64,000 bases of DNA from Haliclystus octoradiatus (taxonomy: Eukaryota > Cnidaria > Staurozoa > Stauromedusae > Haliclystidae). This document shows positions 3,526 through 54,070 of the stretch, piece after piece; within the stretch, counting starts at the first letter, position 1, and every line of letters begins with the position of its first letter. The notes below the pieces were generated by a model. The model was not told the DNA's origin, made no database searches, and saw only the letters and a program-made list of their open reading frames with translations. The stretch covers positions 1,550,001-1,614,000 of the forward strand of contig OU744451.1 of NCBI GenBank assembly GCA_916610825.1, in the 5' to 3' direction. The translations under genes and the position numbers were made by a program.

Positions 3526-15139
<11,614 letters not shown>

Positions 15140-21557: not shown

Positions 21558-22427
21558 CTAATCATCCCATTCGTCATCATCATCTGAATAATCATCGTCA
21601 TCATCGCCATCGCTGTCACTTAATTCAACGGCAATACGTCTTGCAAGGATAGATGCAACATCCATGACTGCCGATGATTCTTGTTTCTTCTCTTGGGTAT
21701 TACGTTCTTGAACTTTTTTAAGAGCCATACCTTGGCGAATAGCAGTAAGTAGACCATCTCTTGTAGGCTCATCATCTTCATCATCTGCTTGGTCAGGTGG
21801 GGGAGGCGGTGGAAGGGATGATGAAGCTGTGGACGGGGGTGGTGGTATACAACCGCCGCCGGTGCCCATGGACATTGGAGGAGGGGGTGGCGGTGCTGGT
21901 GCAGCATTAAATTGAGGAGGGGGTGGCGGTGGCGGTGACATCCCTGGGGGTGGGGGAGGCATCGAACCACCAGGTGACAATAGAGGAGGAGCAGGGAATG
22001 AATCATTAAGAGAATGACTAGGCGGGGGAGGCGGTGGAAATGGAGACATACCACCTGGACCTGGCGGGGGTGGAGGCGGGGGTACTGGGGATATCATGCT
22101 ACTTCTGTGTGAACCTGAATCACCTGGGGGAGGGGGTGGCGCAATCCTAGATGGTCTTTCAATATTTGATCCAGTTGACAATCGCTTAGAATATCGATGA
22201 CTAGGTGACTGCTCTGGTGTCAATGAAGATGGCGGAGGAGGTGGTAGTACATCAGACATTTGTGATGCGGAACGGCCTTTAGATGGAGATGCAACAACTT
22301 CAACATTTTGCTTTTTCTCTGTACTTCTTATTTCCCAATCAGGAACATTTGGTTTCACTTGCTTTTTACGCACTTTAGTGACAGTTTTATTTTCATCTCT
22401 GTTGTTTCGATTTCGTTGCGCTCGTTT
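21558..22427 (-). CDS. WASF: WASF exon 3: proline-rich and WCA region
   Basis: Terminal 870-nt exon after acceptor ctttgttgtttag, phase 0. It encodes the end of the basic region, the polyproline segment (profilin and SH3 binding) and the complete WH2-central-acidic module to the stop. The reading frame extends upstream of the first start-like codon at 22373 to the acceptor. Confidence 0.95.
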   Translation of the reverse strand, partial: KRAQRNRNNRDENKTVTKVRKKQVKPNVPDWEIRSTEKKQNVEVVASPSKGRSASQMSDVLPPPPPSSLTPEQSPSHRYSKRLSTGSNIERPSRIAPPPPPGDSGSHRSSMISPVPPPPPPPGPGGMSPFPPPPPPSHSLNDSFPAPPLLSPGGSMPPPPPGMSPPPPPPPQFNAAPAPPPPPPMSMGTGGGCIPPPPSTASSSLPPPPPPDQADDEDDEPTRDGLLTAIRQGMALKKVQERNTQEKKQESSAVMDVASILARRIAVELSDSDGDDDDDYSDDDDEWDD

Positions 22428-25400
22428 CTAAACAACAAAGAAATTTAAAAAATTAATTCTACTTGGGAGTGTTCAATAGACTAATATTCGAATTATTATA
22501 CTAAAAATGTTTAATCTATACACATAAATGTGAATGTCTTTGTATGTGAGTTTGTAGGTGTTTTTTTCGATTTTCCAGCCATTTCGAAACCAAACTAATC
22601 AAATAGCATATCATCTGATAGACAATTGCAAATAACTACCTAAATGGGCCAAATGTTTTTTCAAGTTTTCTCTTTGCTTGGCGTATCGAAAAAATAACTC
22701 AATTCACACATTGGTTTTGTTTTGCTTTTGGGAACGCAATACTACTACATGCTTTGTTGTGTCGTGTTTACTATGTAATGTATAGATAAATAGAATGAGT
22801 AAAAAAAGATACAGTCAAGCCTGTTATAACAGTCGCCTCTATACAGCAACCATCTGTCTATAGAGGCCACTTGTATATAGTGGTCACTGTTGCAATGTCT
22901 ATAATAGTATTTTCTATTGAATCAATCATGTGCATAGAGGCCACCTGTCTATAGTGGTCAATCTATCTACCTTTCATAGCTGGCTGTTATATACAGGTTT
23001 CCTTGTACATGAATTCTCGCTACTCCGATCTTTATTGAAATTAATAAAAAATACAAAAGAAGGAAAATATTGGCTCTACTGTTCCAAACCTCCTTAAGCC
23101 AACAGAAGAATGTCAGTCCGATCCGATTAGAATGCATCGGATTCATGTTTGGATTTGCACACCTTTAGTGGATTCGTTTTCTTTTATAGTCTGTCAATAT
23201 GATTAGTAATTGAAGTAGGTCTATAACTACTACACAAATTGTAAATTTGCTGATACAACTAAAACAAATCTATAAAATATTATTTTACCTTTTTACGTTT
23301 TCGTTTCTCAAATTCTTCACTCATTTTCTCGTACCAGAGTTCAAAGAAATATGTTGGATTGGTATAAAATTTCAAACCTTCTTTGCCATCAATGCGATAA
23401 ATATTTAAACTATTTAAGTCTGGTACTGGGTCGCATTTCTTGAAATTACCAAGCATGGCATCTGGTAGAGTACTTCTCGATACAACTTGTTGGTCAGAAT
23501 GAATGGTCATTTTAAATGCTTTCTGCATGTTGATGTCTTGTAATGAAACTAAACAGAAGAGGAGAATAGGGATGTACATTCAAAGTGCTTGCAAATCATT
23601 CAAGCTACAAACTTGAAAACAATTCATCTTCGAAATGAGAATAACATTCATCATCATTATCATTATTATGTATTCAGAAACCTTTGAGTTACATACAATT
23701 TTTTTTCAAAGGACTGATTCATTTTGAATTGACAAATTGTAAACAGTTTTAATGTACTCTGATATGTGCACCCTGAGTGCGTAATGAAACATGAAAGAGG
23801 CTTTAAAACATCACGAGCTGCCAGTGAAAATTAATGTCGAATTGAAATCTAGGCTGTTTCATCGCATTACAAATTCAAAATATGAGACTGCTGCATTTGT
23901 TACAGGGTTGCCAGAGCAAAAATTGAGTAACGAGGGCAGGCAGCAGAAACAGGCACTTTTTCAAAAAATTTCTCTAATTCATTCTTGCACCATTTATTAT
24001 ATGCTGTGACTATTTGACTGGCAGTCGCAGCCATTATGGATACCAACGCATGCGTATCATGAAAGAACAGTAACTTACAAACATTTTGGAATGAAAATAA
24101 TGAAAATAAATTAAAAATTTCGAACGACCTGGACTCAAACCAGCATGACTTGCGCGCTAGTCAGACGCACTCCGAATGAGCTATGCCAACCGACGAAAGA
24201 TCATGAAACAGAAATGAATTTAACCTTGACTGGGTGGTTATTCTGTGATCGGACCCTAACTCTAACCTTAGCCGAATGGCTATCACATGATAGGACCCTA
24301 AACCTAACCCTAACCCTGGGACGAGTGAAACATGTGATTAAGTGAATTCCGGCCCCCGTAGTTGAATCCATAATGGTTGCGACTGCCGGTCAAATAGACA
24401 CTTTGTTTATTATATGGGCCTATAAATGTTTTGTTTTTGAACACAAGTAGAAAATATTAATATTTTATGACCAAACCTTGACCAATGAGCGTTTATTTAC
24501 AATTCTTGTGTGGTCAATATCAAGTTATGATTGAAAAGTACATAGTTCGTACATTAGTAAATACAACACTATTATGGAAAAGGCACATGCTGCCCCCGTA
24601 CAGCAGGGGTATGGGTCAGCTGCCCCATGGCTCTGGTGCCACTGATTTGTTGTGGCAGGCAGATAGAGCAGATTGTAAAGTCTGTTTCTTTCGGTTAACA
24701 TCTTAGCAAAAGAAGGTTTTGAACTTGATTTTACTCACACATCTTGTCTTCTTTGCAGCATTTCCTATAATTATGTTTTTATCAAAATAGCAAAGATATC
24801 AGAAATGTTGACTTGTGTCCTTTGCCAATTCTATTGTTTTTGAAAACAAAGAAACCACCAACAAAATCTCGTCGATGACGTAGTTTTATTTGAGTATTCC
24901 AGGGTGCAACAGTCAACAGCGAACAAATTGTAAAATATATTAGCACCTGAAATTTTGCTGCTAAATTATTTGACAGAAAAAGTGCCTTGAGTCACCTTGT
25001 GTCTATATATTGCAGGGTATTGGAGCTAATTAAACTGGATAACTGATTTTATTATTCTAATTTACTGATTCTGGAGAGTCATTGATTTATGGTGGCTACT
25101 GTTTACTGCAAACTTTTTGAGCGCTCGTTGGAGATCGAAATACAGACTGAAATAAATGATTCAAATTTGTGGAAATGATAAACATGACACTTGAAGGTTG
25201 CTATATTCTGAATAAATTTTTCCCTTGTTCTTGTACACGTGGAACTGCTGAATTTTTCGATGGTAGTTCCAAAGCATTCACAATGACACACTAATAATCC
25301 TGAAGGGTAAAAACATGTCCAGCTAATTTCGTCATCTGTATTTTCAATTTTGATGATGTTGAAATAAGTTTGTGATTTTCTACAAGCATCAGTTAATCGA

Positions 25401-27793
25401 CTTGATTTTATAACCATAAGTTTCCATATGGATTTAAGTCATTTTATTTTGGCTTGCATGTTGCATCTTTCATTAATTTACGTAATGTTGAACCCCATCT
25501 TTCCCCGTACATCAAATGCGTGATAATTTGCCAGAACAATACGATCAAACAGAATGCGGTTACCGATATGCAGAATCCTGCACCACGCTGTACAAAGGAT
25601 ATAAGTCCCGCTTACCACTTGTCAAATTGCGGCGTATCAAAGTGGAACTTATAGATCATTCATTTGATCTAATTCTAATTCATCTATCTAGCTTGATTAT
25701 TTTTACCATATGGTTTGTCATTGTCAACTTAATTTAGCTGCAAATAGCTGCTGCAAAAATAGCACAATAGGCATGAATGCTATTAGTCATTAATAATAAT
25801 AATACGCAAACCGTGTCGGTGATCAAATCACCATTGTTTCATTATTGTTAAACTCCTTTTCCGCAGAGCACTTTCCAAACTTCTTATACGCTTCTGGGTT
25901 ATCTATAGGCCTTTGGCTATCCGACGTTTTGTTTTTACAGGTTAAAATGCTATAAATTGCTCATAAATTGCGATTAAAATTTCCAAAATAGTGATATTTC
26001 GACGGAAGTTATGTGAAAATAAACTGCTTTCCTTGATGTATCCCGTCATGCCTAGCAACATCACGAATTTTAGAGCACGCTTTATTTTAATGGCTGCCAA
26101 TATTTTGTAAAAGTGTTTCATATTTTGCAAAAGTATTCCAATATGCCTAGAAGGAGATGAGGTCCAACAATACTCCATTTTACATCACAAACAGAAGACA
26201 CAATTCTCGGTAAGTCTTTTACAACTTGAATGTTTAAATGCTTCATGTAAAGTCTGTCGAAGTCACTTTTACCGTGGTTTTTACCCTGTTGCATCACTTG
26301 CATGAGGGCTTACAGGACTCTAATGGCAATTGTTTATACTTTTAGTTTTCATAATCCCCAATAGCCTACTTTGTTATCAAGTCATCGTTGGCCGAAGAGA
26401 TTTCTGTGTCACTGTATCGCCATGATAGCTTGATTTGTTATGAACTGCTCTCCGTTGGAAGAAAGGATTTACTGTGTCACCGTTTTATGTCAGCAGTTCT
26501 GTTCTGTTATCCACACTGCACATACAGAGATTTGACCCATAACAAATACACAAATTCAGAGAATTAGTGTGGTACTTTTCAGTCGTCAAGCAGTTGTAAG
26601 TTGTACAAATACAAAATTAGAATTGTAATTTAGCTGCCTTCTATCGTTTTATCGAAATGTACATTTATAATGTGCCATACATTGACAACGTCCACTGTGA
26701 CCACACATTGTTTGAGTTAATCATTATTATAAGACGTAGGTGAATGGTGACCATTATAGACATTTGTCCTCTCTGTGAGAAGCTGGCTCAAGTTAATAAA
26801 ATATTAGAGTTTGGGTCTCTCATTTATGTAATTTACTGTATCAAATTTCAGAATCACCTGTTGTTATTACCACTCAATGACTCATGCTGAGATTCACTCA
26901 ACCGATACAGCAATAATATTTACATACCAATGCCTTTCACTGTGAAAACAAGTTCATTAACTGCTTACCTAACATACAATCCAAATTTATTTAATTTGAA
27001 CTATGTAGTCAACATAAAATTTACTTATAGATAACCTATATTTATTTGATTTGAAATATGTAAGACAATAGAGTATCAATTCTCTCCTTTTCTCTATGCT
27101 TTACATGTACGTAAGGATTAATTATCAAAACTGAAATTAATTATCAGTGTTGTTCTGCTTTTTTGATTCCTTCTCATGACTATTTTGTTTCATTGACATT
27201 CTCTTTGACAAGATTTACTGCAGGCTACTAACGGGAGCGAAGCGACCTCTTTGAGGAAGCCGAAGGCTGACTGGCCCCGGGCGCAGGCCGCAAGCCGAAG
27301 GCTTGTACAACAATAAAATAGAAACAACTAATTACATATATTATGCCTAGGCTTACTATTATTAAAACTTGCAAATGCATTAGCGCCCTATTTTTTTAAA
27401 AGCGGAAATTTATATAATACACATATCAAATCATTGTACATTTAGATATTTTGTTTATCGGCCATATTAAGCATTAGGCCTATTAGCCCAACAAAACTTC
27501 AAACTTATTTATAAGTACAACTTACTTTCTTCTCCAGCTGAATCAAGCTGGGTTACTTTAACAGATAACTTTCCAACACGTTCATGTACATGACATGTAC
27601 GACTATAGATATTAGTAGCCTCAATGAACAGTTCAGCGAAAACGTTTTCTGCGTGCTTCGCTAGGCTACTCAATTGTAGTATAACACCGCTCAATGTATT
27701 CACTGTCACAGCTTCCAGTTCATTTTTAACTCCTTTGGGTATTTCATCACGGCTAATATGAATTGGTTCAATACATCTTTTTACTAAAGGCAT
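21558..27793 (-). CDS. WASF: WASF/WAVE actin-nucleation-promoting factor (3 exons, 465 aa)
   Basis: Joined exons on the minus strand are 27793-27526, 23548-23289 and 22427-21558 (1,398 nt). The protein is the output subunit of the WAVE regulatory complex: downstream of Rac it recruits and activates Arp2/3 to build branched actin at the leading edge. Seen: N-terminal WAVE homology domain (residues 1 to about 170) beginning MPLVKRCIEP, with the family blocks VKVTQLD, ISLQDIN and GKEGLKFYTNPTYFFELW; a basic Lys/Arg patch across the exon 2-3 junction; a proline-rich centre with many PPPPP runs; a WH2 motif at about 399-415 (LLTAIRQGMALKKV); a central helix (VASILARRIAVEL); and an acidic tail with the Arp2/3-contacting Trp in EWDD. 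Length is slightly below vertebrate WASF1-3 (about 500-560). A single WASF gene of this form is typical for invertebrates. Confidence 0.96.
22812..23005 (+). mobile_element. TA-flanked MITE, copy 4
   Basis: CAGTCAAGCCTGTTATAACA to TATATACAGGTTTCCTTG between TA dinucleotides, in WASF intron 2. Confidence 0.75.
23289..23548 (-). CDS. WASF: WASF exon 2: rest of WAVE homology domain
   Basis: A 260-nt exon after acceptor cttctgtttag, entered in phase 1 (A+TT gives Ile) and left in phase 0 at AAG before gtaaaata. It contains the family signature GKEGLKFYTNPTYFFELW and the start of the Lys/Arg-rich basic region. Confidence 0.94.
24118..24196 (-). pseudogene. tRNA-like sequence inside a transposable element
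   Basis: On the minus strand: TAGCTCATTCGG (A box), an anticodon-like stem-loop, and GGTTTGAGTCC (B box) with a partly paired T stem. The acceptor strands do not pair, so this is a tRNA pseudogene or SINE head carried by the 24004-24405 element. Confidence 0.5.
24291..24319. repeat. Short interstitial telomere-like repeat
   Basis: About four CCTAAC-type units (ACCCTAAACCTAACCCTAAC), with weaker echoes at 24244-24270. Too short to be a telomere; it lies inside the 24004-24405 element. Confidence 0.5.
24706..27525 (-). other. WASF intron 1, remaining part
   Basis: Intron 1 runs 23549-27525. Apart from the element at 24004-24405, it holds a small inverted-repeat fragment near 25590-25660 and a GC-rich patch at 27228-27302. 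Minor frames here (for example 25103-25417, minus) show no recognisable domain. Confidence 0.4.
27228..27302. repeat. GC-rich patch with GCCGAAGGC repeats
   Basis: GGAGCGAAGCGACC, GAAGCCGAAGGCTGAC, then GCAAGCCGAAGGCTTG: short self-complementary GC words in a very AT-rich intron. Origin unknown. Confidence 0.5.
27526..27793 (-). CDS. WASF: WASF exon 1: start of WAVE homology domain
   Basis: Begins ATG-CCT-TTA (MPLVKRCIEP), matching the conserved WASF N terminus and fixing the start. It ends GGA GAA GAA A before gtaagttg, phase 1. It encodes 89 residues of the amphipathic helix/coiled-coil region that binds Abi and HSPC300 in the WAVE complex. Confidence 0.95.
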
Positions 27794-28032
27794 GTTTATG
27801 CTTTATTTGATGCTCTAGGCATCGAATAAAGCAACCAAATTTGTAATAAAAGTCAATAAAATTGTAGAAATAATATCTGTAAAACTCCTCCCAACTGAAA
27901 GTTTATCTTGACGGAAGGTGAGCCTCTATTTCATGTTTGTGTATTTGATTGTTTTATTCTGAGGCAATTGCACATAATCTTCACACAGACAATACTGAGA
28001 AGCGCCAAATAAAACACACGATACTCGGCAAC

Positions 28033-33846: not shown

Positions 33847-34057
33847 ATGATGTCTTCTTCAAACTTAGGATTCCCTGCTCCACAACTTGATTTATCTGGA
33901 AAACTCATCATCAAAGCACGTCTCGGAGATGATATTCGACAAATTCCAATTCACAATGAAGACATTACTTACGATGAACTATTATTAATGATGCAAAGAC
34001 TATTTCGAGGCAGAATCAAAGGGTCTGATGATATAGTTATCAAATACAAAGACTCAG
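33847..34057 (+). CDS. TFG: TFG exon 1: first part of PB1 domain
   Basis: Starts at one of two adjacent ATGs and ends GAC TCA G before gtaactat. It encodes the first ~70 residues, including the basic face of PB1 ([13 protein letters not shown]) and IVIKYKDS at the junction where the acidic block follows in exon 2. Confidence 0.95.
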
Positions 34058-37000: not shown

Positions 37001-40000
37001 TGTTTTTCTTTCCTTTCAGACGGAGATCTTATTACCATTTTTGATAGTTCTGACTTATCATTTGCGAAATCACTCAATAGACATCTAAAAGTCACATTGT
37101 TTGGTAGGTACCATTGTATCTTACATAGCCTAAAGGAGTTCATGAGTTCTTAGATATTCATTGCACGTAGAAAAGGCTGATGATGTGAATGATGGTATTG
37201 TTAGATCCGAAATTATGTTATAACATGCTTAAGCGGGATAAAAATGTTTCTATCTGGTTGAAATGATTTTAGTTTGCATCCTACTTGGTGAAATCACTTT
37301 AAGTATGACATATTTTTCATATTTTTAAATTCGTAGTTTCTATTTGACCGGCAGTCGCAGCCATTATGGATTCAATTGCGCGTGCACAGATAGTCACTTA
37401 CCCAGTCTCGTGTTTCACTCGTCCCACGGCTAGGGTCCCATTATTGTTATCATTATTACCCATGCGTTGCTATTCATAATGGCTGCGACTGCCGGTCAAA
37501 TAGTCACAGTGTTTTAAAATTTAAGAGCACACAATAGAGGATTCTACTGTTCAAAAAATATTTTTCAAAGTAATGAGAGATTCTGATGTATATGAATTGA
37601 AAAAATTGATTGAGTAAAAGTTCAAAGCCGATCCGATAAGAAATGACAGAGTCATCGATGTTTTGAAGAATCTAGTTTTGCCGCGCGTTTATTTTTGTGA
37701 CGTAAACAAGTGATCATTATTCATTAAATGACAGTTGAAATATGAATTGAAAAATTACAAATATCATTTTTAATTATTGAAGATGTCCATGCAGTGAATC
37801 TGCACACTGTTCTCGTAATGTGCCAACAGACCGAGGGCATGGTCTAACATAGTCATTTGAAAACATGTTTTCTGTAACTTGAAGGTTTTCTGAATAAATG
37901 ATGATGATCGTCCCCATTTTATTTGAGCTTTCATGTTATCTTATACAGGGTCCGACAAAAGTGGGGATCCTAGATCCCGGAAGCGATTTGACAAACAGAT
38001 AGAAGTTGTGACCACCTGCGCGCGCATGTGCCGTAACATATCCAAAGCGGTCAATTTGCTCTAATTTGTGCGGCCAAAGCCTAACACGTAAGTTATCTTT
38101 ACAAAATGGCGATCAGAAGCAGACGTAAAACGAAGGAAACCTATGACTTATATTTAGATTACACTTTATATTTCTTAATGAAAATTGAATACTTGATTAC
38201 ACTTCACAATAAAAAACTTACGATTAAATGGATTCAGAAAAACTTTTATTATCAAGTCAAATAGTCGACGGCATAAATCTTAATTCCTGAATGTCATGGC
38301 CTATTATTTGCTTATTCTATGGTTCTAGACACAATGTAGTCGAGAATCTATATCGCTAAATAGGTAAGCACATAATAAACTATGACTTATCTAAGTTTAA
38401 AACTGTTGACGGTATTTGATAATGCTTCAACGAACAGCAGCTCGATATTTATTCTGCAAAAACACGACAGTCGAGTTAAACAAATTCTAGAAACCTTCTA
38501 TAAGTTGGCAATGAAAACTGTCTGGTTCTTTTAAAAGCGCGCACTAATTTATCTAAAACTGGTTGCACAATTAAAATAAATAATAAACTACCATGATTCT
38601 AAAATTGACGATAATTGCTTGACTCTTTTATACCAAAGTTATTTACTTTGCAAAATACGAAGTATACCATACTCTTTCCGCTTTGTTGACAAAGTCTCAA
38701 AGCCATTTTTACTTTTTGAATTATAAGGTCTCTCAAATCAAAGCAAGGTAATGCCGATGACTACATATCACTCAACATGTATCACATGCATACACATGTA
38801 TCGACGTAAATTGATAAAATTTCATGAAAAAGTATCAAGTTTAATATGTTTAGATATATAACCATCCAAGTTGCCAAAGGTTTTTTGGGGGAGGGGGTGT
38901 CAAAATGTAGGTCTTTCACTTACTTCAACTTGTAGGTCTCTCCAAATAAATTGAGACATGCAGATGACTAGATATCATTAGGTAGTAATCTTAGACATGT
39001 ATCAAAATCAATTCAAAATATTTCTTGAAAATCGACCAAGTTTATATTTAGATACCGCCACTTAAGTTGACAAAGGGGGCATTTGGGTTTATTCAAAAAG
39101 CTAGGTTTACATTTTCTCCCACTTCTAGGTAGGTTTCTCAACATAAAACAAGGGATGCCGATGATAAGATATCATTAGAGATTACTCCTAGACATGTATT
39201 CAAGTAAATTCAAAAATAATTCTCGAAAATTGATCGAGTTTATATGTAAATATAGCCACTTAAGTTGACAAGGGGGGCATTTGGGTTTGTCAAAAAGCTG
39301 GGTTCACACTTTCTCCAGCTTTTAGGTCCGTCAAATTAAAACAAGGGGTGCCAATGATTAGATATCATCAGAGATTACTCCTTGACACGTATCGAAGTAA
39401 ATTCAAAACATTTCTTGACAAAATATCTAGTTTATATTTAGATTGAGCCATTTAAGTTGACAAAGGGTGCATTTTGGGTTTTTCAAAAAGCTGGGTTCAC
39501 ACTTTCTCCAGCTTCTAGGTCCGTCAAATTAAAACAAGGGGTGCCAATGATTAGATATCATCAGAGATTACTCCTTGACACATATCGAAGTAAATTCAAA
39601 ACATTTCTTGACAAAATATCTAGTTTATAAATAGATAGAGCCATTTAAGTTGACAAGGGGTGCATTTTGAGTTTTTCAAAAAGCTGGGTTTTACGCTTTT
39701 TCCAACTTCTAGGTCTCTGAAAGTAAATTGAGACAGGCAGATGACTAGATATCACTGGATGGGACTCTTAGACATATATCGAAGTAAATTCAGAACATTT
39801 CTTCAAAAAACATCTAGCTTATATTTTGATAGAGCCATTTAAGTTGACAAGGGGGGCATTTGGGGTTTTCAAAAGCCGCATTTTCACTTTCTCCAACTTC
39901 TAGGTCCCTTTAATTAAAACGAGGGATGCCGATGACTAGATATTACCAGATATTACTTGTAAACGACACCCAGCGTCTGTGGAGTTTAATTTGTGTTACA

Positions 40001-43000
40001 GTTTGTATATTTGTTCAACTATTAGAACATTGAGGAACAAATGAAATTGTTAGAACATTGAAACAACATAACACTAAACACATGAATATCTTTGCTACAG
40101 TATTAAAATTAACTATTTCAAATTAATAATTCCGTTGTCGTAGAACACCCAAACACCTGACAAACAACTGTCACAAATTGAGGTGATGTGTACGTAAAAC
40201 AGCGGATGCACATTCCAACTGCATGCTGCTGAGGATGACTGCCACATTTTTGAGAGATAAATCCAACAACTAAATTCCCTTGTATTTCATGTATTTCTTA
40301 ATAAATTATATTTATTTCAAGCAGTTTCAACTAAGAAATCATTGTCACCATTCTTCATCATTTAGCTTCAGCTACTTGAATCTGTGTTAAAAATTTGTTG
40401 TGTCATGTGCTCTTTAAACTAGGTTACCTATATAGGCAAAATACCTAAATTATCTAATTGCTCAGCATTCTAAAAATAGGGTTACGTTATGATTGAATAT
40501 AGTACTCTCAAAACAATCCCGAAGTAACATTACGTTATAAGTTAAAGATGTGACATGCTATCATCTATTACATTCAAATAACGACACCATAATCAAACTT
40601 AGGCATAATTCAGAATACCTGTTCATGTAGCTACGTCATCCAAGTTTAACATTTGTAATTAAACAATCATGTAATAATATAAAAAGAGGCCGATAAATTA
40701 GGAATTCCATTAATTAATTAACTAAATAAAAAGCACAAATTTCATGAAAAAATATTAATTTAAGGTATAAAATATATAGCCTCAAATTGATGTATCTAAA
40801 TATACACTAATAATAACATAAAAGTGATTGTGTAGTCATTGCTGTTTTAATATTGTTTGATGCCATAAAAGCAGAGCTGTTTAATAATAAATAAATGCAA
40901 ACATGAGACATTCATATTTGCTACTAATAGTTTCGCCTTGAGCGATCATCATGCAATTTAATCTGTAGATATGATATGAATGTCTGATTTTTGTGTTTAT
41001 TTATTATTAGATATGAACTAGATATTTTTTCAAGAAATGTTTTGAATACTTGTCTAAGAGAAATCTCTATTGATATCTAGTCATCGGCATCCCTTATTTT
41101 AATATGAGGGACCTAGAAATTGGAAAAAGTGTAAATCCGGCTTTTTGAAAAGACACAAATGCCCCCTTTGATAACTTAAATGGCTCAATCTGAATATAAA
41201 CTTGATATTTTGTCAAGAAATGTTTTGAACCTACTTCAATATAGTTTGTCAAAGAGTAATCTCTAATGATACTTAATCATCAGCACCCCTTGTTTCACTT
41301 TGAGGGACCTAGAAGTTGGAGAAGGTGTAAGCCCAGCTTTTTGAAAAACCCCAAATGTCCCCTTTGTCAACTCAAGCGGCTATATCTAAATATAAACTGG
41401 ATCCTTTTTCGAGAAATATTTTGAATTTACTTCGATACATGTCTAAGAGTAGTATCTAGTGATATCTAGTCATCTGCATGTCTCAATTTATTTTGATAGA
41501 CCTACAAGTTTAAGTGAAAGACCAGCATTTTGACCCCCCTCCCCCCAAAAAACCTTTGTCAACCTGGACGGTTATATGTCTAAACATAATAAATTTGATA
41601 GAGCTTTTTCATGAAATTTGATCAATTTACGTCGATACATGTCTATACATGTGATACATGTTGAGTGATATGTAGTCATCGGCATTACCTTGCTTTGATT
41701 TGAGAGACCTTATAATTCAAAAAGAAAAAGATGGCTTTGAGACTTTGTCAACAAAGCGGAATGAGTATAGTATAATTCATATTTTGCAAACTAAATAACT
41801 TTGGTATCAAAGAGTCAAGCAATGATAGTCAAACTTAGAATCATAGTAGTTTATGAATTATTTTAAATGTGCAACCAGTTTGAGATTAATTAGTGTGCGC
41901 TTTTAGAAGAACCAGACAGTTTTTATTGCCAACGTAGGCCTATCGAAGGTTTTCTAGACTTTGTTGAACTCGACTGTTGTGTTTTTGCAAAATCAATATC
42001 GAGCTGCTCTTTGTTGAAGCATTATCAAATACTGTCAACAGTTTCAAACTTAGATAAGTCATAGTTTATTATGTGCTTACCTTTTTAGCGATATAGATTG
42101 TCGACTACAGTGTGTCTAGAATCATAGAATAATCAAATAATAGGCCATGACATTCAGGAATTAAGATTTATGCCGTCGACTATTTGACTTGATAATAGAA
42201 GTTTTTCTGAATCCATTTAATCGTAAGTTTTTTATTGTGAGGTGTAAACAAGTATTCAATTTTCATTAAGAAATATAAAGTGTAATCTAAATATAAGTCA
42301 TAGGTTTCCTTCGTTTTACGTCTGCTTCTGATCGCCATTTTGTAAAGATAACTTACGTGTTAGGCTTTGGCCGCACAAATTAGAGCAAATTGACCGCTTT
42401 GGATATGTTACGGCACATGCGCGCGCAGGTGGTCACAACTTCTATCTGTTTGTCAAATCGCATCCCGGAAGGCTAGACAAAATTCAGAAGAAAGTTGATG
42501 TTTTTAATGATTTATTGGTCAAACGTCAACAAACAAATTCAGAAGAAAATGTTGAAATGCCTCTAGGATTCCAGAAGGACCCTGATCTTATGTGTCTTTT
42601 GTTGTTTTAGTTAATGGAAAGCCTAAACCGCTTGAGAGTGATCAAGTGAAAGATCTACGCAACGAGCTAATATCAATCCGAGATACTGTTAATGATTTAT
42701 TGAACCGTTTACAGTCCTATTCTGACAATGCTCCTGTTCATTCAATAACAACCGTGGAAGATCGTAATTCACTTTCAGCTCCTGGTAGGTGACATTTTTC
42801 ATATTAAAATATAGTTGTCTACCGTAGTGATACCGTGACATAGCAGCTAGCTAAAGGACTCTAATTTTAATAAGGCTACTGTATCAACAAGTGAACTAAG
42901 CCATTTGCGAATGAATATTGCCACTATCTTTTGATCGGCTACAAATTTAGACAGGGGTTCGTTGTTGTATGTTCAAGTAGAATGTAGTAGCAAGTTTGTT

Positions 43001-46000
43001 GTTGTAGATACAAGGCCCTGCAATCATAGATTCAAAAAGGCTGAAGCAGAAACATATAGCTGAAATATATGTGTGAAAAAAATGATATTTTTGTGATTTA
43101 TAGACCAGATTTCAACAAGAAAATTCAAAAAGAAATTTTAAAATGATTTAGGATTCCAAGAGACCTAACCGTTTGTCAGACCCTGCTAAATGATGTAAAT
43201 ATTGCTAACTTATACATAGTAATCAATTCCAATTTACCTTGTTAAATTCTCGTTTGCATCAGCTATATGTCATGCAGGGCTGTTCTAAGCAGAGGCACTG
43301 TTACGACACACGCACACAGCCAAAGCTATCATATACACCCTTCTCCAGTAAGAAACCATAATTATTTGAATAGTTAGTTCGAATTAATGTTTTGATATAA
43401 ATTAAAACAGTAATTGATGTAGTGATTGTGAGCAACATCTAAGCTAATCAGGTTTACTCCACGTCAGCTCGTAACTATAAATAACTTTTCATTTCATGCA
43501 GTTCCTATTTTTGCATTTAAATTGAATTAATTTCTCTTCTCGTAAAAATGTCCCCCAGAGTATATGTCAACGGCCCTGAAGTAAGATTGCAATAAATTGT
43601 TTGTGGCTGTGGAGGCCAGGGTTCGATAAATAGGGGATTACAAGTCCTGGAAGACTACAAATGAAGAATGGAAATTAAAATGTTTCCAAAACTAAAAGGA
43701 ATTCATGTTTACATTTTTCTTCCTTTCAAAGATATAAAGGAGATATGCAATTTTAGGATAATTTGGTGATACCTAAAATTGCAATATTTTTGCTATGACG
43801 CAAATTTATATGTTATTATCATCAGAAGAAGTATTTTAAAACGGGACGCTAGATTCCTTTTTATCGGACCCTGGTGGAGACGGCCTACTGGTTCCACTTC
43901 ATAGGCACGCTCCTTGATTTTTCATCTTAGCCAATACAACAACTACACATTCTGCTGACCGTCCGCCATTGGTTATGTCTCCTTCGTCGCCTTCGCCTAT
44001 CATAGTGCACAATTTATCCAGTAGTTCATCATCGCTTCTGCCATCTGCTGTTGGATTGAAACGATCATCTCAAGATGCTTTCTCGCCAACATTTAGTAAT
44101 CCACCGACTGATAATAATACACCATTTGCAAAGAAACGCCTTGTATCACGATTTCCAGATTCGATCCGTGATATTTTAGAAGGAGCGTATCAAACAAAAT
44201 TTGAAGGACCTGATGACAGAAGACAGTTTAGTAAAGAAATTGTTGTTGGCTTGGCAAATCAATTACAGATTACACCTGAACAGGTTAAACAATGGGTTCG
44301 TAATAGAAACAAGAAGGAAAGACAAAAATATCGTGAAGACAAAAAGTTCGATCCTTCTGACGATGCACTGGGTCATGAGCAATCTGTTAACAATGGTCCT
44401 GTCAAAGATAGCCGCCATACGATATGTTCCGCACAAGGTGTTTACGTTGTGCACCAAAAAGAACATCGGTCAAATCAAAATATTTAATCATATTTTAAAA
44501 CATGATCAAATCTTGTTTTGAATATATATATATATATATCAGTTGATTGTTGCTGACTAAAACAACATATTTACAGTCTTTGTTAAGAACAGACTTATAA
44601 TGCATAGCATTTAATATAGCAATTAAGAATTTAATTAGATATCTTTTATATCTACATGGTTTAACCATGAGTTAAATATTTGTAATAGATAGATAGTAGA
44701 CTGCTCTAGAAGTCTTTTTATAAAGATGTATATATATCTTAGATTTTTACAACAACAACAAGTGTTTAACTAGCTGGACTCTAGATTAAAAATGATCAAA
44801 TATTGTTTATAGTGTTATGATCTGTAGAATAGGAAAGAAATGTTTTAATTCTGTATTGGAACTGTCTATTATTTAACAGTTAGTGATCGAAGATGATGTG
44901 AATATTGGCTGATAATGATTGAGGTATGTCGAGGTCATCATGCCAATATTCATCAAGTCTGAGATCAATAACTGTTTTAGTCAATGTCTAACAGGTCAAT
45001 TTTGTAATATAATCATTAAATGTATAATGTATTTTAATGTACCAAAAAACGCAATTATCTGTTGCGTCTTAACGCTTAAACAGCAAAAAAAACATGGTGG
45101 GTGCAGTCAATACAGCTCTATAATTGATAGCTTTTCGGCAAATCAAATTGCTCGATTTTCGTATTCACCTGTTAGACGATGGCTAAAGAATTGATAATAA
45201 TGCAGTCGTCAAACTCAATTATTATTAAACATTTGAAGGATTGCCATGTTATGTATGTCCACAACTTGGTAAACCTTTTTATATAATGATAGTTGTTTGA
45301 GGTTTGCATTATTTTTATCAAATTTAACGAAAATATAATATTCAATAGCTAACAGGAAATATTTTTAATTTCTACTTCAAAGATGTAATTAGATACTTTA
45401 TTTTATATTTTGATGATAACAGATGTAGATATGTAATTTTTCCAAGGGAACATTATAGATTATATTAATTATTTAGATTAATGATGTTGGATATTGTTAA
45501 TTTTGTGTAGAGATTATTTAATGACATGACAGTAAATAGAATTGATATACCTAGAATACAACAACAAAAAGTGTGTATTTTGAAAAAAGCTGTTTCAAAG
45601 CTTTTGTTAAAGCTTTCCTGGTGTTTTTATTATTCAAAATAGATTACGTGATGGCTCATTATTTTGTTTATTATTCTAATTAGTGACTAATGAGTGAATT
45701 GTTTTGATGACTATCAGAGAGAAATATTGCGTTTGAACATTACAGTACTTGTCTTTCATAGTTTTGAAATTGAAAATCATTGCACATGCCGCAAAAGTTT
45801 GTTCTTGATTCTCCATAAATAAACAGGCATGAGAGAGCTCTTCTCTGTTAGCTCCATAACAAAGAAAACACTTTTCTAGTTGTTGTTTTGAGGGGTTTCA
45901 AGGGTTTTCCTCCCTTTTGACTGAACTCTACTCTCGTGCGTGATAATAAGTGGCCCTGCGAGAAAAAGGGGGCACACACCTAGGAACAAAACAAAATAAC

Positions 46001-49000: not shown

Positions 49001-52000
49001 ATGACCAGGTTTCAAAAAAAAAACTACCAAGGACCAACAGCCACATGGATGTTCTGGAAACAATAATTATCAACTAGAACAGCTTCAAAAATGTATAATT
49101 TTCAGGACCTATACTAGATTTTTAAAACTAGAAATTTAGATTTGATCGTATTGGGTGCTTGTCAGGGTTCGATAAAATGGGGAATTCTAGAACTGAGAGT
49201 CGCGGAAGGCTAGCACAAATTCAGTAGGAAGGGAAAGGAATAGTTGTAATGGAAGAAATAATTGTAAATAATTTATGTTTTTTAATCAGAAGATTTCTTT
49301 TCTTGGACAGAGAAGTGAAACTGTGCAGTTGTTACCTTTTTTATGACAAAAACCGTAAAATATAAAGTTCTGGAAACAGTTTGCACTGATCAAAGCTTAG
49401 ATAGAATGCTCTTTGTCTTCGAACCAATTGCAATTGCAAAATTAGTTTGACCATTTTCGGAAATTTTAGGAAAGCTAATTTTAAAACTATCAGTTGTGTT
49501 CGACTAAAGGTGGAATAATTGCTAGAACATTTTTTAACATAATTCAAGTGAAGGAATGTCCATAGTCAAAATCAGTGCAACTCATATAAATGTTCTGCTT
49601 GTTTGTATGACCCTTGCTTTGAAACTCGATTTGAAATTTGAAACTTTGGTTTCGAGCAAAAGAGATGTCCCAATGGTGTCCATAAAGTGGTAGATCACAG
49701 ATAGCTCACTTTCACATTAAATCCACTTATTTCGTCCAAATTGAAAAATTCCATTTCGCCATTCTTCCTCCTTGTTTTGCATCAGCATCTATTTGAAGCT
49801 GTTTCAAATTTGTTTGTGTCATGTGCATGTTAAATAAGATTTTTGACATGCAGTATTAAAATTCAAGGATTTAGATATGTAAACAAGGGAGATGGTTGAT
49901 CAAATATGTTTAATTACAATATACAGTCAATCCTGTTATAACGGTCACCTCTATAAAGCGGCCACCTGTCTATAGTGGTCAATTTTGCAATGTCTAAAAT
50001 AATATTTTCTATTGAATCAAACCTGTATATAAAGGCCACCTGTTTATAGTGGTCAATTTATCTACCTCTCTTAGCTGACTGCTATATACAGGTTTCACTG
50101 TATTGCATGATTTGCTTTGTACTATTAAAAGATGATCTACATGCATGGGGTGGGTATCATTAAGCTATTTTCAAAGATTCATATTTAAAAAATGCAAAAC
50201 CTATTTGACATTTTGACCCAATAAACTTTAATTGACAAGAGCAGATCAAACTAAAATCGTATGGCATACTATTAATGCTACCGTTTTATGATTCAGCCAA
50301 TCACAGCTCACACGACTGATCATTTATTGCATTGAAACTGTATATAACAGCCAGCTATAAGAGAAAGATAAATTGACCATTGATGCAGGTGGTCTTTATA
50401 TACAGGGTTGGTTTAATAGAAAATACTATTTTAGACATTGCAAGAGTGACCACTATAGACATGTGGCTGCTGTATAGCTGTCAATTAAATACAAATCAGG
50501 CCTGTGAATAAAAGCTTGTAGCTTATCAGGTTTTCTGATTAAATGATGATGATGATTGATTTGTGCTATTTCAACATCAATTAATGAAATCTTTATAACT
50601 ATTATGTAATGTTTATTGACCATGAATTCTTATTAATTTACATATTATGCTAAAAGGAAATATTATCATCAGCCGCTTTGAAGCATAATTATATGGTGAT
50701 TTCAATAGAAGCAAGTAGTTTAGTACAGTAGTTTGTTATACAACATATAAATATTATGTAGTACGGTTTTGTTTATAACAGAGCTCAACAGTGTATTGCT
50801 TGGTGGCATTTAATCAGTACAGTATTTGTAAATGTTCTAATTAGGTTCGAAGACAAACAGGTCGATTTACGTTGGTGTTTTTCAGGGAAAGATACAGAGA
50901 AGCCAGTTGCCAAAGTACCCGGAAGTATGATTAATCAGATGCAGGTCAATTCTGTTGATACGAATAAAGCAAGTGCTGCCATGTTTGATCCCCTCAAGAA
51001 TGAAGCAGATAGTACCAGCCAAAGAAAGGATCCCTTTACTGCGATTGGTGAGTTGATTGCAATGTAGCTGACCATTTCAATTTTTCCATTATCATCAGCA
51101 ATTCATACATAAATACACAATCAATAGAAATGTAGATTATTTAATACAGCGTATTCTTGTTAATAACCATTACTTTTTCACAACCAGTTCCTATCGAATT
51201 CAACTAATTCACTCCGGTTAATATCACGATTTTTGGCTGCACCATGACAATAATATTTATGAGGCTACACTGTATAATCATGATAGCTTGTGTCTTCCAA
51301 CATGACAGGAAGAGATGCCAAGGGCTACTATGGCCTTCAGTCTGTACTTACAGTGATACAACCGACACAAAGAGACGAAAAAGAATGTTGACTTGGTAGA
51401 GTTCACACACATAAATTATCCCTAAAGGGCCCATGAAAAGGAAGCCCATCTTTCTTCGTTCATAAATTAGGGCTATTTATTGGATCTGAATTTGTAGTGA
51501 TTTAAATTTGTATGTATGTCATTATATTTTGTTTGTTAAACAGTTTGCTTCCGTCCATTAAATAGCTCTATTTAGATAAAGAGTTCGTGAATTCATGGGT
51601 CCGTTTTAAAAAAAAAAAATCAGGCCAACATACGTCCTGCGAAAAAGTTTGTTGATTTCGTGAACTGTTCATTTTGATGAATGTTATGAATATCAACACT
51701 AATTCATGAACATTAAATCAAAATGTTTCAATTTTCATGAATTTTTCCATGGAGTCAAATTTTTTAGTCATCTTACGTTTATAAACTGTTTACACAGAAG
51801 TTATGTTCATGGACATTGTAGAATTCATTAAAAATGTAGCGGTATTACCCTATCAAAGATGCCCTCATCATCATTCTGTTCTAGGGAAGTGGCTCATTTT
51901 CTGGAAGGTAGAAGCTATTCTACGCGAAGGAATGTCGGTGACGGATAGCCCCTGTGTAAAGTCCAACAAAATTCAGACACCTGGTTGCAGATAGCCTGCT

Positions 52001-54070
52001 CGCAGACTCTCTGTAAATATGAAACTTAGTTAACTATGTAGTACTGTAGCAGTCTACTGTTTTATTTAGTTTCCGATTTACAGAGAGCCTGCGAGCAGCC
52101 TAGGTTGCAGAGGGCTACGTAAGGTCGAAAGGAAAGGCTAGATTTAAGGCTATAATCATTAGAAATACAAAAAGTAAAATTTTGATTTTGCGTTTTGGTA
52201 GTTTAATAAAATTACTTGAATATTGAGCTAAAAAGTTTGCGAACTCTAAAATGTTTCGTTGGGCCACCCCCTGTGTAAAATTTTCATGAATTATTTGCAA
52301 CTCAAGGGATGCGAAACTAATACAGGTGCTTTCGAATTCATAATAGAAACAAGATTTAATAAAATGATATGTAATCTGCCTAATTTGGGTTTATAAAGGG
52401 CTGTTTTAAAACATGCATAATAGGCATGTGCCTACAGTCGGCCTGTTTCTAGTGTGGAGGATTTGTAAAATTTAAAATCAATGCAGACCTTCATTACACA
52501 ACATTCTATATGATACATATCACAATACATTCTTAGCATTCTTGTGCTGGATTGGTGGGACGTCTGCAGCCAATCAACAATGGCAGAAGCCAGGATACCC
52601 AAAAATCATACCTGTTACCACTAAGACCAGGCACCAGTCACACTGCTAAGTCAGTGGAGAACCTAATATACTTACCTTGCCTTGCTCCTTGGAGGTGAGG
52701 GGGCATTACTTGGATAACCCAGTGTAAGCACTGCGCAAACCCACAACCAGCATAACAGCCGTACATAGGTGCAGCATTGCACAACAATCTTGTACCCATA
52801 ACTGAATACATTTGTGAGGCCTCAGTGCAGCAGTGAACATTGCACACACATGTTTGTAAGTTCAATACACTGGTTAACGAACTGGTTAAGCAATAATCAG
52901 CAAGTAATAACCAATACAATCTCAGATTGACTGAGGAACTCAAAGCAGCTAGCAAGAATTGCTCGATATGGCTCGCCATATTGACCTGTTGGTTGAAGAC
53001 TAACAAAAATTATCCTTAGTTTCAGTCTATTTCAAACATTTTTACTTTCATGGCTGTGTTATGGTGGGGAAGCAAGGCAAGTTAAGAAAACTTTAGGGCT
53101 ACCACGTAATTTCATGAATTGAGTTTGAAATTAGGTCCCGTATTTCAAATGTTTTGCAAAAAGGCTGCTGATCATTTTAAAAAAATCTAATTTTCTCCTT
53201 TTTTATACCCTCTTCCTTAACAGTCGCATCATTAACATGTTTCTATACTCTATCCCCCAAACAATTGCTTCTTCTTAATATCCAACTATCTTAATTTCTA
53301 CCTTTTCGGCAATATCAAAGAGGAGGAATAAAGTTTGACTTTATTTAATTGGCCATTATGGACAAGTGGGCACTAAATGGAGGTTTCCGCTATTGCAGGT
53401 TGTTTGTTGCTGTAAATATTTGTAGTATTATGGTTACTTTTTCTATGTAGGTCAATCGCAACACCAGACTGCAATTAAACCAAATCCTCCAATTCATGAT
53501 ACTTCAACTTCATATCAACCTCAGGCTAATTTACCTTCTACTCAGCAACCGAATCAGCAACCAACCTATCCTTCATCAGTTGCCCAGGCGCCTGCAAATC
53601 AATATCAATCTGATCAAGCAATAGGCGGCTCCTCAGTTGCTGCTTTACCTGTCGTATCTGATAACACTGCTTCTGTTCAACCATACTCTAATCAGCAACA
53701 ACAACAACAACAGCAAGGCAATTTTTATGAAACCAACAACACTGGATATCAACAGCCATCTTATCAACAACAACAACAACAACAACAACAGGCTCAAGCT
53801 GTAGGATATGCTTCTCAGGGGGGACAACCCCAGCAAAGTAATTCTTTTTATAATAATCAACCAGCTACAGCATATAGTCAAGAAACTCAAATTCATCAGG
53901 TGCAACAGCCTTCTTATAATCAACAGAGTAATCCTTATCGTACGATGTCACCACGGCAACAATATCCAACACCAAGTCAAGGCTATGATATATATTATCA
54001 ATCACAAGGCGGTACTCAACCCCCTGTTGCTGCATCAGTTCATTCTGGTTATACTGGTTTACCAGGCTAA
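33847..54070 (+). CDS. TFG: TFG (Trk-fused gene), main isoform, 5 exons, 416 aa
   Basis: Joined exons 33847-34057, 37020-37103, 42611-42784, 50886-51047 and 53451-54070 (1,251 nt); all four introns are phase 1 with GT-AG ends. TFG forms oligomers at ER exit sites and organises COPII carriers between ER and ERGIC. Seen: PB1 domain (about residues 16-98) with [20 protein letters not shown] and the acidic [16 protein letters not shown] block; the family block [17 protein letters not shown] leading into a short coiled coil (about 100-140); the conserved FDPLKN motif at about 190; and a C-terminal Pro/Gln/Tyr-rich low-complexity region (from about 211) with CAA/CAG Gln runs. Length is close to human TFG (400). 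The tandem ATG-ATG at 33847 and 33850 leaves the start ambiguous by one residue. Confidence 0.96.
34749..35753. mobile_element. 1-kb foldback element with 9-bp target duplication
   Basis: Inverted ends of ~115 bp begin TAGCCTGCGCGCAGACCCAA and close with the complement. Exact 9-bp direct repeats GGCCTAGAT flank it (34740-34748 and 35754-35762). No transposase; interior frames are unrecognised. It lies in TFG intron 1. Mutator-like by duplication length and long inverted repeats. Confidence 0.8.
35763..37019 (+). other. TFG intron 1, remaining part
   Basis: Intron 1 spans 34058-37019. Apart from the foldback element at 34749, no exon or complete element was recognised. Confidence 0.4.
37020..37103 (+). 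CDS. TFG: TFG exon 2: acidic PB1 block
   Basis: An 84-nt exon between ctttcctttcag and gtaggtac. It encodes [19 protein letters not shown] and the end of PB1 (HLKVTLF). Too short to show as an open frame; identified by TFG homology and matching phases. Confidence 0.95.
37335..37505. mobile_element. Inverted-repeat element related to 24004-24405
   Basis: CTATTTGACCGGCAGTCGCA then GCCATTATGGAT at the left, with the complement at the right. A loose A/T-rich direct repeat (TTTTTAAATT / TTTTAAAATT) flanks it. In TFG intron 2. Confidence 0.65.
37615..37715. repeat. Dispersed repeat shared with 9755-9850
   Basis: AAGCCGATCCGATAAGAAAT with GTTTATTTTTGTGACGTAAA closely matches AAGCCGATACGATAAGAAAT with GTTTATTTTCGTGACGTAAA near 9760. 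Neither copy is coding. Confidence 0.6.
37983..42461. mobile_element. 4.5-kb foldback transposable element with 9-bp target duplication
   Basis: Exact 9-bp direct repeats ATCCCGGAA (37974-37982, 42462-42470) flank inverted ends GCGATTTGACAAACAGATAG. The arms have about 745 bp of unique sequence (37983-38727 and 41711-42461) and then tandem ~195-205-bp units: about seven on the left (to ~39960), four on the right (from ~41075). Each unit has AGGTCTCTCAAA-like sequence, ATGCCGATGACTAGATATCA and AAGTTGACAAAGGGGGCATT. The ~1.1-kb centre has no transposase frame. The TSD length and foldback shape suit the Mutator superfamily; it is non-autonomous. It fills most of TFG intron 2. Confidence 0.85.
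42611..42784 (+). CDS. TFG: TFG exon 3: coiled-coil segment
   Basis: A 174-nt exon between tgttgttttag and gtaggtga. It encodes [10 protein letters not shown], the coiled-coil stretch ([19 protein letters not shown]) and a Ser-rich linker ending SAPG. It is the last exon shared by the main and the homeodomain-like isoforms. Confidence 0.95.
42785..43930 (+). other. TFG intron between exon 3 and the homeodomain-like exon
   Basis: No further exon found. It carries fragments of a dispersed repeat (GGTTCGATAAATAGGGGATT near 43620; a reverse copy near 43140-43190) that also flanks the large foldback element. Confidence 0.4.
43931..44487 (+). CDS. Alternative TFG exon encoding a homeodomain-like helix-turn-helix
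   Basis: Starts after acceptor gatttttcatcttag and reads, with the single G left by exon 3, as [13 protein letters not shown]..., then a Ser/Pro/Asn-rich linker, a basic AKKRLVSR, and a homeodomain-like segment at 44149-44331: helix 1 IRDILEGAY, helix 2 [13 protein letters not shown], recognition helix [19 protein letters not shown]. Homeodomain core residues W48 and N51 are present; position 53 is Asn instead of Arg and the helix 1-2 loop is about seven residues longer than the classic fold. The frame then runs 50 more residues to a stop at 44487. Spliced to TFG exons 1-3 it predicts a 341-aa protein with PB1, coiled coil and putative DNA-binding domain. A possible donor at 44437 (phase 1) would instead make it a 507-nt cassette exon in frame with TFG exon 5. 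It could also belong to a separate nested gene. I do not recognise the homeodomain class. Confidence 0.65.
45818..45823 (+). promoter_or_regulatory. Candidate poly(A) signal for the homeodomain-like TFG isoform
   Basis: First canonical AATAAA downstream of the stop at 44487, giving a 3' UTR of about 1.3 kb. Weaker ATTAAA variants occur earlier, at about 44784, 45015 and 45225. Position only; nothing here proves use. Confidence 0.25.
47955..48090 (+). mobile_element. tRNA-derived SINE, family 2
   Basis: A-box-like TAGTGATTAGGG and B-box GGGTTCAATCCCTGGCAGAA, followed by GCACTATTGGTTGGCGTCAA. A diverged copy of the B-box part lies at about 46440-46500 (AGGTTAATCCTTGGCAGAAG). The head differs from family 1. 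Confidence 0.6.
49924..50100 (+). mobile_element. TA-flanked MITE, copy 6
   Basis: CAGTCAATCCTGTTATAACG to TATATACAGGTTTCACTG, flanked by TA on both sides. Confidence 0.8.
50333..50490 (-). mobile_element. TA-flanked MITE, copy 7 (degraded, inverted)
   Basis: TGAAACTGTATATAACAGCC and AGACATTGCAAGAGTGACCA are clearly the family interior in reverse. The right end has decayed and runs into a retroposon tail (about 50500-50550). Confidence 0.65.
50886..51047 (+). CDS. TFG: TFG exon 4 of main isoform: FDPLKN motif
   Basis: A 162-nt exon between ttggtgtttttcag and gtgagttg, phase 1 at both ends. It carries [13 protein letters not shown], matching the conserved SAFDPLKN segment of TFG, and so confirms that the main transcript skips the homeodomain-like exon. 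Confidence 0.94.
51048..53450 (+). other. TFG last intron
   Basis: No exon recognised. It holds a GTTCATGAAC-family fragment near 51640-51790, a dispersed-repeat fragment interrupted by the hairpin at 51992-52102 and otherwise unassigned sequence. The 122-codon minus frame at 52638-53006 has no recognisable domain. Confidence 0.4.
51992..52102. mobile_element. 111-bp hairpin element with 9-bp target duplication
   Basis: TAGCCTGCTCGCAGACTCTC with TGTAAAT at the left and the near-complement ATTTACAGAGAGCCTGCGAG at the right. Exact 9-bp direct repeats GGTTGCAGA flank it (51983-51991 and 52103-52111). Ends resemble those of 29650 and 34749. Confidence 0.8.
53451..54070 (+). CDS. TFG: TFG terminal exon: Gln/Pro/Tyr-rich tail
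   Basis: A 620-nt exon after ttttctatgtag, phase 1, stop TAA at 54068-54070. It encodes the low-complexity C terminus with two polyglutamine runs (around 53696-53716 and 53766-53790) and many QQxYxxQ units; this region of TFG phase-separates and binds COPII coat. A candidate poly(A) signal ATTAAA lies at 54229. Confidence 0.95.

What the first reader, a model, noticed from the sequence alone, without database searches (positions are those of the whole stretch)
43931..44487. A homeodomain-like exon inside the TFG gene
Between TFG exons 3 and 4 lies an exon with a good acceptor, in the phase of exon 3, that encodes a helix-turn-helix with homeodomain hallmarks (WVRNRNKK at the recognition helix; conserved Trp and Asn) and then a stop. 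It predicts an isoform in which TFG's PB1 oligomerisation domain and coiled coil are joined to a putative DNA-binding domain, replacing the COPII-binding tail. I know of no TFG isoform with a homeodomain. A secretory-pathway scaffold that also makes a nuclear-type protein would be new. Phase match alone has a one-in-three chance.
Basis: partly seen in the sequence, partly recalled or inferred. Interest (0 to 1): 0.85.

Follow-up and report, generated by a model that had tools for sequence, protein, structure and literature searches.

The report
Homeodomain-like exon inside jellyfish TFG
In a stalked jellyfish, the gene for a protein that organises secretion (TFG) carries in one intron an intact, in-phase exon coding for a divergent homeodomain-like fold, which might turn the scaffold into a DNA-binding protein; RNA evidence is still needed.

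Summary
TFG lies on the + strand (E 3.3e-41 to a solved TFG PB1 domain) and its four introns are all phase 1. In intron 3, 43931-44487 is open behind an acceptor as good as that of exon 3, in exon 3's phase. It encodes a divergent homeodomain-like fold: Pfam 2.8e-4 but below the cut-off; hhalign 96.5% over the fold. W48 and N51 are kept; F49 is V, R53 is N, and about 8 residues are inserted before helix 2. It is unique in this genome. Codon signal starts at the acceptor, before the first ATG, which favours an upstream spliced exon over an intronless nested gene; the one candidate first exon found in the intron scores non-coding. Scaffold lengths point to Haliclystus octoradiatus. RNA reads could not be reached, so splicing to TFG is inferred. 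Whether the exon ends at its own stop or is a 507-nt in-frame cassette is open; its tail scores non-coding. Cnidarian PPCS/POU6 is a published homeobox-enzyme gene fusion, so the kind has a precedent; I found no report of the TFG pairing.

The parts
33847..34057 (+). TFG exon 1 (start ATG, first part of PB1)
   Evidence: PB1 alone only 17.6 bits, below Pfam cut-off 23.6; with the other exons E 3.3e-41 to PDB 9e7c Protein TFG
37020..37103 (+). TFG exon 2 (rest of PB1), ends phase 1
42611..42784 (+). TFG exon 3 (helical segment, coiled coil by recall), ends phase 1
   Evidence: donor score 4.99
43931..44487 (+). Candidate exon 3b: S/T/P-rich linker, homeodomain-like fold, short tail and TAA stop
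43931..43974 (+). Stretch between acceptor and first ATG; its 14 full codons score as coding in the TFG phase
   Evidence: score 0.69, reached by 0.46% of 3,678 GC-matched open non-coding windows
44140..44331 (+). Homeodomain-like fold, helix 1 to helix 3, with about 8 inserted residues before helix 2
   Evidence: hhalign 96.5%, E 8.7e-10; Pfam covers helices 2-3 only
44438..44443 (+). Weak candidate donor (AAG/GTGTTT) that would make a symmetric 507-nt cassette 43931-44437
   Evidence: score 1.0; 29 of 585 GTs as high
44785..44790 (+). Candidate poly(A) signal ATTAAA for a terminal-exon form; first AATAAA is at 45818
50886..51047 (+). TFG exon 4
53451..54070 (+). TFG exon 5 (Q-rich tail and stop)

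Best explanation
43931-44487 is a coding exon of TFG in Haliclystus octoradiatus, used alternatively after exon 3, that adds a divergent homeodomain-like fold to TFG's PB1 and exon 3 helical part. If it ends at its own stop it makes a 341-residue protein without the exon 4-5 Q-rich tail; if the 44437 donor is used it is an in-frame 507-nt insert. Likely working: PB1 oligomerises the protein, the basic third helix (WVRNRNKKERQK) contacts nucleic acid, and a multivalent, nuclear-capable form is made from the promoter of the secretory scaffold. Shown: sequence, open frame, fold similarity, phase, acceptor quality, uniqueness, codon signal. Inferred: the splice junction, expression, nuclear location, DNA binding, function.
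For: Acceptor comparable to real TFG acceptors in the phase of exon 3; all TFG introns are phase 1. Rough chance that so good an AG falls in the 57 open bases before the ATG and in phase: about 0.02 (my arithmetic). Codon signal in the 14 codons between acceptor and ATG, 0.69, reached by 0.31% of 14,970 open non-coding windows and 0.46% of 3,678 GC-matched ones (windows overlap). No signal in windows starting at 43850 and 43880. Only one ATG-started phase-1 segment with a donor of at least -2 lies in the intron before it, and it scores non-coding. Fold. No parent copy elsewhere. Precedent for homeobox fusion to an unrelated gene in Cnidaria: PPCS/POU6 (PMC6599738, passages).
Against: No RNA and no relatives. 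The first ATG at 43975 would also serve an intronless gene. The tail 44338-44436 scores like non-coding sequence: 43% of 4,295 open non-coding windows score as high and only 2.8% of 2,599 coding windows as low. The cassette donor is weak. F49 and R53 are replaced and Pfam's cut-off is missed. Codon training is small and partly homeobox exons.
Confidence: 0.55

Rival explanations
1. An independent homeobox-like gene nested in TFG intron 3 on the same strand, with its own promoter, starting at ATG 43975 (intronless) or with a short or non-coding first exon; the TFG phase match is a coincidence (one in three).
For: ATG 43975 follows an in-frame stop and gives a 170-residue frame holding the whole fold. 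TATA-like words at 43396 and 43476. A short ATG segment 43272-43347 ends at a phase-1 donor of score 2.04.
Against: Codons before the ATG look coding in the frame that runs on from the acceptor. The segment 43272-43347 scores -0.13, reached by 78% of open non-coding windows. A non-coding first exon cannot be excluded.
Confidence: 0.25
2. A decaying relic of a homeobox gene or of an old insertion, not expressed.
For: Two near-invariant residues lost, Pfam below cut-off; tail scores non-coding; dispersed repeats on both sides, 43075-43185 and 44870-45187 (capped lists).
Against: 189 codons open in AT-rich DNA; frame-specific codon signal across linker and fold; no parent or sister copy in the genome.
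Confidence: 0.1
3. A gene whose 5' end is made by spliced-leader trans-splicing at the 43930 acceptor, with translation from ATG 43975.
For: Trans-splicing is known in Hydra (recalled; PMC3273482 was seen only in listing and two passages). An acceptor 44 nt before an ATG is the expected layout. The recalled Ciona leader matched this genome more often than its reversed control at up to 2 mismatches (1,080 against 552).
Against: In 0 of the 10 Ciona-leader matches that I read does a GT donor follow, so the excess does not look like leader genes. The recalled Hydra leader is not in excess: 146 matches at up to 3 mismatches against 238 for the control. A staurozoan leader could differ; two tries with the SL RNA family did not complete. 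The codons before the ATG look coding.
Confidence: 0.05

Closest known systems
PPCS/POU6 fusion gene of Cnidaria (PMC6599738, passages)
   Same: A homeobox joined to an unrelated enzyme gene, in cnidarians only; PPCS-like and POU-like exons also lie near each other in this genome
   Different: Full POU-class homeobox gene, other partner, reported in several species; here a divergent lone fold inside an intron of TFG, seen in one genome
TFG-TEC (TFG-NR4A3) oncogenic fusion (PMC8795729 and PMC11706801, passages)
   Same: N-terminal part of TFG joined to a DNA-binding protein; described as a strong transcriptional activator
   Different: Tumour translocation in people, nuclear receptor partner; not a normal isoform
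Ceramide synthases with a homeodomain-like region (recalled)
   Same: Secretory-pathway protein with a homeodomain-like fold
   Different: Membrane enzyme; constitutive part of the protein
Yeast MAT alpha2 homeodomain (recalled)
   Same: Working DNA-binding homeodomain with V at position 49
   Different: Keeps R53; three-residue insertion
TFG (solved PB1 domain 9e7c)
   Same: Host gene; PB1 and tail exons present
   Different: The homeodomain-like exon; none reported in the searches

Membership tests
Homeodomain (PF00046) | Score over Pfam's curated cut-off | tested here: not met
   21.1 bits against 22.9; genome scan 21.9, also below
Homeodomain (PF00046) | Three-helix profile along the whole domain | tested here: met
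   hhalign 96.5%, 56 columns, helix 1 to 3; 100 shuffles reach at most 18.5 of 48.1
Homeodomain (PF00046) | W48, F49, N51 and R53 (numbering recalled) | tested here: not met
   W48 and N51 kept, F49 is V, R53 is N
Homeodomain (PF00046) | About 60 residues without long insertions | tested here: not met
   About 8 extra residues before helix 2
Homeodomain (PF00046) | Sequence-specific DNA binding | not testable with these tools
   -
TFG (host gene) | PB1 domain of TFG type | tested here: met
   E 3.3e-41 to 9e7c over residues 7-105
TFG isoform with exon 3b | Acceptor and phase compatible with exon 3 | tested here: met
TFG isoform with exon 3b | RNA joining exon 3 to 43931 | not testable with these tools
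   No reads held
TFG isoform with exon 3b | Conservation in sister species | not testable with these tools
   No other cnidarian genome was on hand; scans of viral contigs and genome contigs found none
POU class | POU-specific domain | tested here: inconclusive
   None in the exon or in 10 intron ORFs given to Pfam; genome-wide POU search not answered. Best pairwise match is a POU homeodomain, 79 against 74 for the next gene
CUT class | CUT domain nearby | tested here: not met
   Only one CUT match in the genome, on another contig, C10

The most novel reading that the evidence does not exclude
Staurozoans make from the TFG gene a conserved, PB1-oligomerised homeodomain-type protein, so that one gene yields both the ER-Golgi scaffold and a multivalent nuclear DNA-binding factor: a natural counterpart of TFG-TEC and a second cnidarian homeobox joined to an unrelated gene, beside PPCS/POU6.
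Probability: 0.35. Interest if true: 0.8.

Novelty: new variant of a known kind. Interest (0 to 1): 0.55.

Why it matters
If the junction is real, a gene known for organising secretion also makes a DNA-binding-type isoform, which would show a self-assembling scaffold domain borrowed for transcription in normal evolution, as tumours do in TFG-TEC. With PPCS/POU6 it would suggest that cnidarian homeoboxes became attached to unrelated genes more than once. It is quickly testable: RNA-seq of the species is public and a second staurozoan genome (Calvadosia) is published.

Tried and rejected
Homologues elsewhere: viral contigs (17 pattern matches, none confirmed) and genome contigs (86, none confirmed); neither collection is meant to hold cnidarians. 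Solved structures: the whole frame gave 13 sequences at E up to 1, best a designed protein at 0.032; the domain alone gave 30 at E up to 10, best the same designed protein (7bqq, 0.012), then POU3F1 (0.11) and other homeodomains. Retrocopies that might show the spliced form: TFG matched only its own five exons (5 of 5 matches) and the exon only itself plus one POU gene at E 0.85. A PB1 search of the genome found nothing and rang in none of the 14 controls, so it says nothing. Rfam found no RNA family in the window. Ascidian origin considered and dropped after the leader test and mitochondrial code; octocoral dropped because no MutS match lies on mitochondrial contig C33. A PPCS search with the DFP model found nothing, though PPCS-like exons were then seen by eye. 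Class assignment: 71 homeobox loci given to (L032 and L049 overlap), 15 yielded no domain by my pattern and were dropped. Exon boundaries were off by one base at exons 2 and 5 and at exon 5 (including its codon training); one search has them right, and codon figures are unless one search is named. Literature, all open-access PMC: 2 papers, listing only; 185 papers, 20 listed; 0 papers. No homeodomain isoform of TFG appeared, but the 165 unlisted papers were not seen.

Full report
What was checked. The finding says that between TFG exons 3 and 4 lies an in-phase exon encoding a homeodomain-like fold and a stop. I read the region, rebuilt TFG, tested the exon for domain, splice and codon signals, looked for copies in the genome, and identified the species.

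The host gene. Exons 33847-34057, 37020-37103, 42611-42784, 50886-51047 and 53451-54070 give an open 416-residue protein. Its first part matches the one TFG entry found among solved structures, 9e7c, at E 3.3e-41. All four introns are phase 1. The five matches of a genome search with this protein are its own five exons, so no second copy was seen.

The species. Scaffolds of 39,977,743, 28,991,210 and 20,733,292 bases equal the longest, N50 and N90 scaffolds of Haliclystus octoradiatus jrHalOcto1.1, also with 33 scaffolds (PMC9975415, first of two parts read). The total held here, 261,861,806, is 36,537 below the 261,898,343 in that paper; I did not trace the difference. Mitochondrial COX1 reads best with code 4 by eye and lies on the strand opposite COX2, as I recall for medusozoans. 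The window's contig, 26.96 Mb, fits chromosome 6.

The exon. The frame 43918-44487 is open. Pfam finds Homeodomain at E 2.8e-4, 1.8 bits below its cut-off; the genome scan lists the place at E 0.04 among 124 matches at E up to 10. Profile comparison with 25 homeodomains of the same genome is clearer: 96.5%, E 8.7e-10, helix 1 to helix 3, with about 8 extra residues before helix 2; score 48.1 against a mean of 9.6 and maximum of 18.5 in 100 shuffles. W48, N51 and a basic helix 3 are kept; F49 is V and R53 is N. I therefore call it homeodomain-like rather than a member of the family. Among 56 homeobox loci compared (of 71 given) the best pairwise match is a POU homeodomain (79 against 74 for the next), a weak preference; no POU-specific domain was found in the exon or in 10 intron ORFs, and the genome-wide POU search did not complete.

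Is it joined to TFG? The acceptor scores 3.58, between the real exon 3 (3.35) and exon 4 (5.02) acceptors; 11 of 434 intron AGs reach it. Its phase fits exon 3. If the exon were an intronless gene starting at the first ATG (43975), the stretch from the acceptor to that ATG would be untranslated. Its 14 codons score 0.69 in frame, reached by 0.46% of 3,678 GC-matched open non-coding windows and 0.31% of all 14,970 (windows overlap, so these are not exact probabilities). In one search, with a slightly wrong training set, the other two frames score negative and windows starting at 43850 and 43880 show no signal. In the intron before the exon one ATG-started segment ends at a phase-1 donor of score -2 or better, 43272-43347; it scores non-coding. 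Together this favours splicing from exon 3, without proof.

Where does it end? After the fold the codon signal fades: 44338-44436 scores like non-coding sequence. This counts against a long tail. The best donor in the exon, 44437/44438, would make a symmetric 507-nt cassette but is weaker than all four real TFG donors. Otherwise the exon ends at its stop, with ATTAAA at 44785 and the first AATAAA at 45818. Both options stay open. Dispersed repeats lie on both sides, at 43075-43185 and 44870-45187 (40 best candidates scored in each, so copy numbers are lower bounds).

Trans-splicing. The recalled Ciona leader matched more often than its reversed control (1,080 against 552), but none of the 10 matches read is followed by a GT. 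The recalled Hydra leader is not in excess (146 against 238). These are weak tests.

How it would work. A passage in PMC12009431 says TFG was reported to form octamers through PB1, and that its condensates admit COPII coat proteins. The terminal form would keep PB1 and exon 3 and lose the Q-rich tail; the cassette form would insert the fold before it. Either product would be an oligomeric protein with a basic homeodomain-type helix. TFG-TEC, a sarcoma fusion of TFG with a DNA-binding protein, is called a more potent activator than TEC in a reference title (PMC8795729; see also PMC11706801). A nuclear role is thus plausible; it is inference.

Comparison. PPCS/POU6, a homeobox fused to an enzyme gene, is reported for Cnidaria only, and is linked to a Hox gene in Eleutheria, Calvadosia and Cassiopea (PMC6599738, passages). 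In this genome PPCS-like exons, a POU-specific-like exon and a POU homeodomain lie on one strand of C5, and a Hox-like gene lies close by on the other (recognised by eye and recall). So the kind is known; the TFG pairing did not appear in the listings. Verdict: observation confirmed, interpretation partly supported, new variant of a known kind pending RNA.

Noticed in passing
L104-L106, G000:C5:9930156-9951142: Hox-like gene (+ strand, 9930156) about 3 kb from a POU homeodomain, POU-specific-like exon and, further on, two PPCS-like exons (- strand): looks like the PPCS/POU6-Hox linkage reported for other medusozoans.
   Followed up: partly
G000:C5:12817300-12909396: Sixteen homeodomain matches of nearly equal score on the - strand within 92 kb, one with a stop: a tandem homeobox array.
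   Followed up: no
L019 and L020, G000:C6:3550387 and 3552032: Two almost identical posterior-Hox-like homeodomains 1.6 kb apart.
   Followed up: no
window 37975-42469: Large nested inverted repeat in TFG intron 2; outer arms 519 nt, 96% complementary, 3,457 nt apart: probably a foldback-type mobile element.
   Followed up: partly
window 21558-27802, - strand: ORFs that look like a WASF/WAVE gene with a proline-rich part (recognised from recall).
   Followed up: no
window 11149-11935: Long AAT/ATT-type triplet repeat open in several frames (poly-N, poly-I, poly-Y); a simple repeat, not a gene.
   Followed up: no
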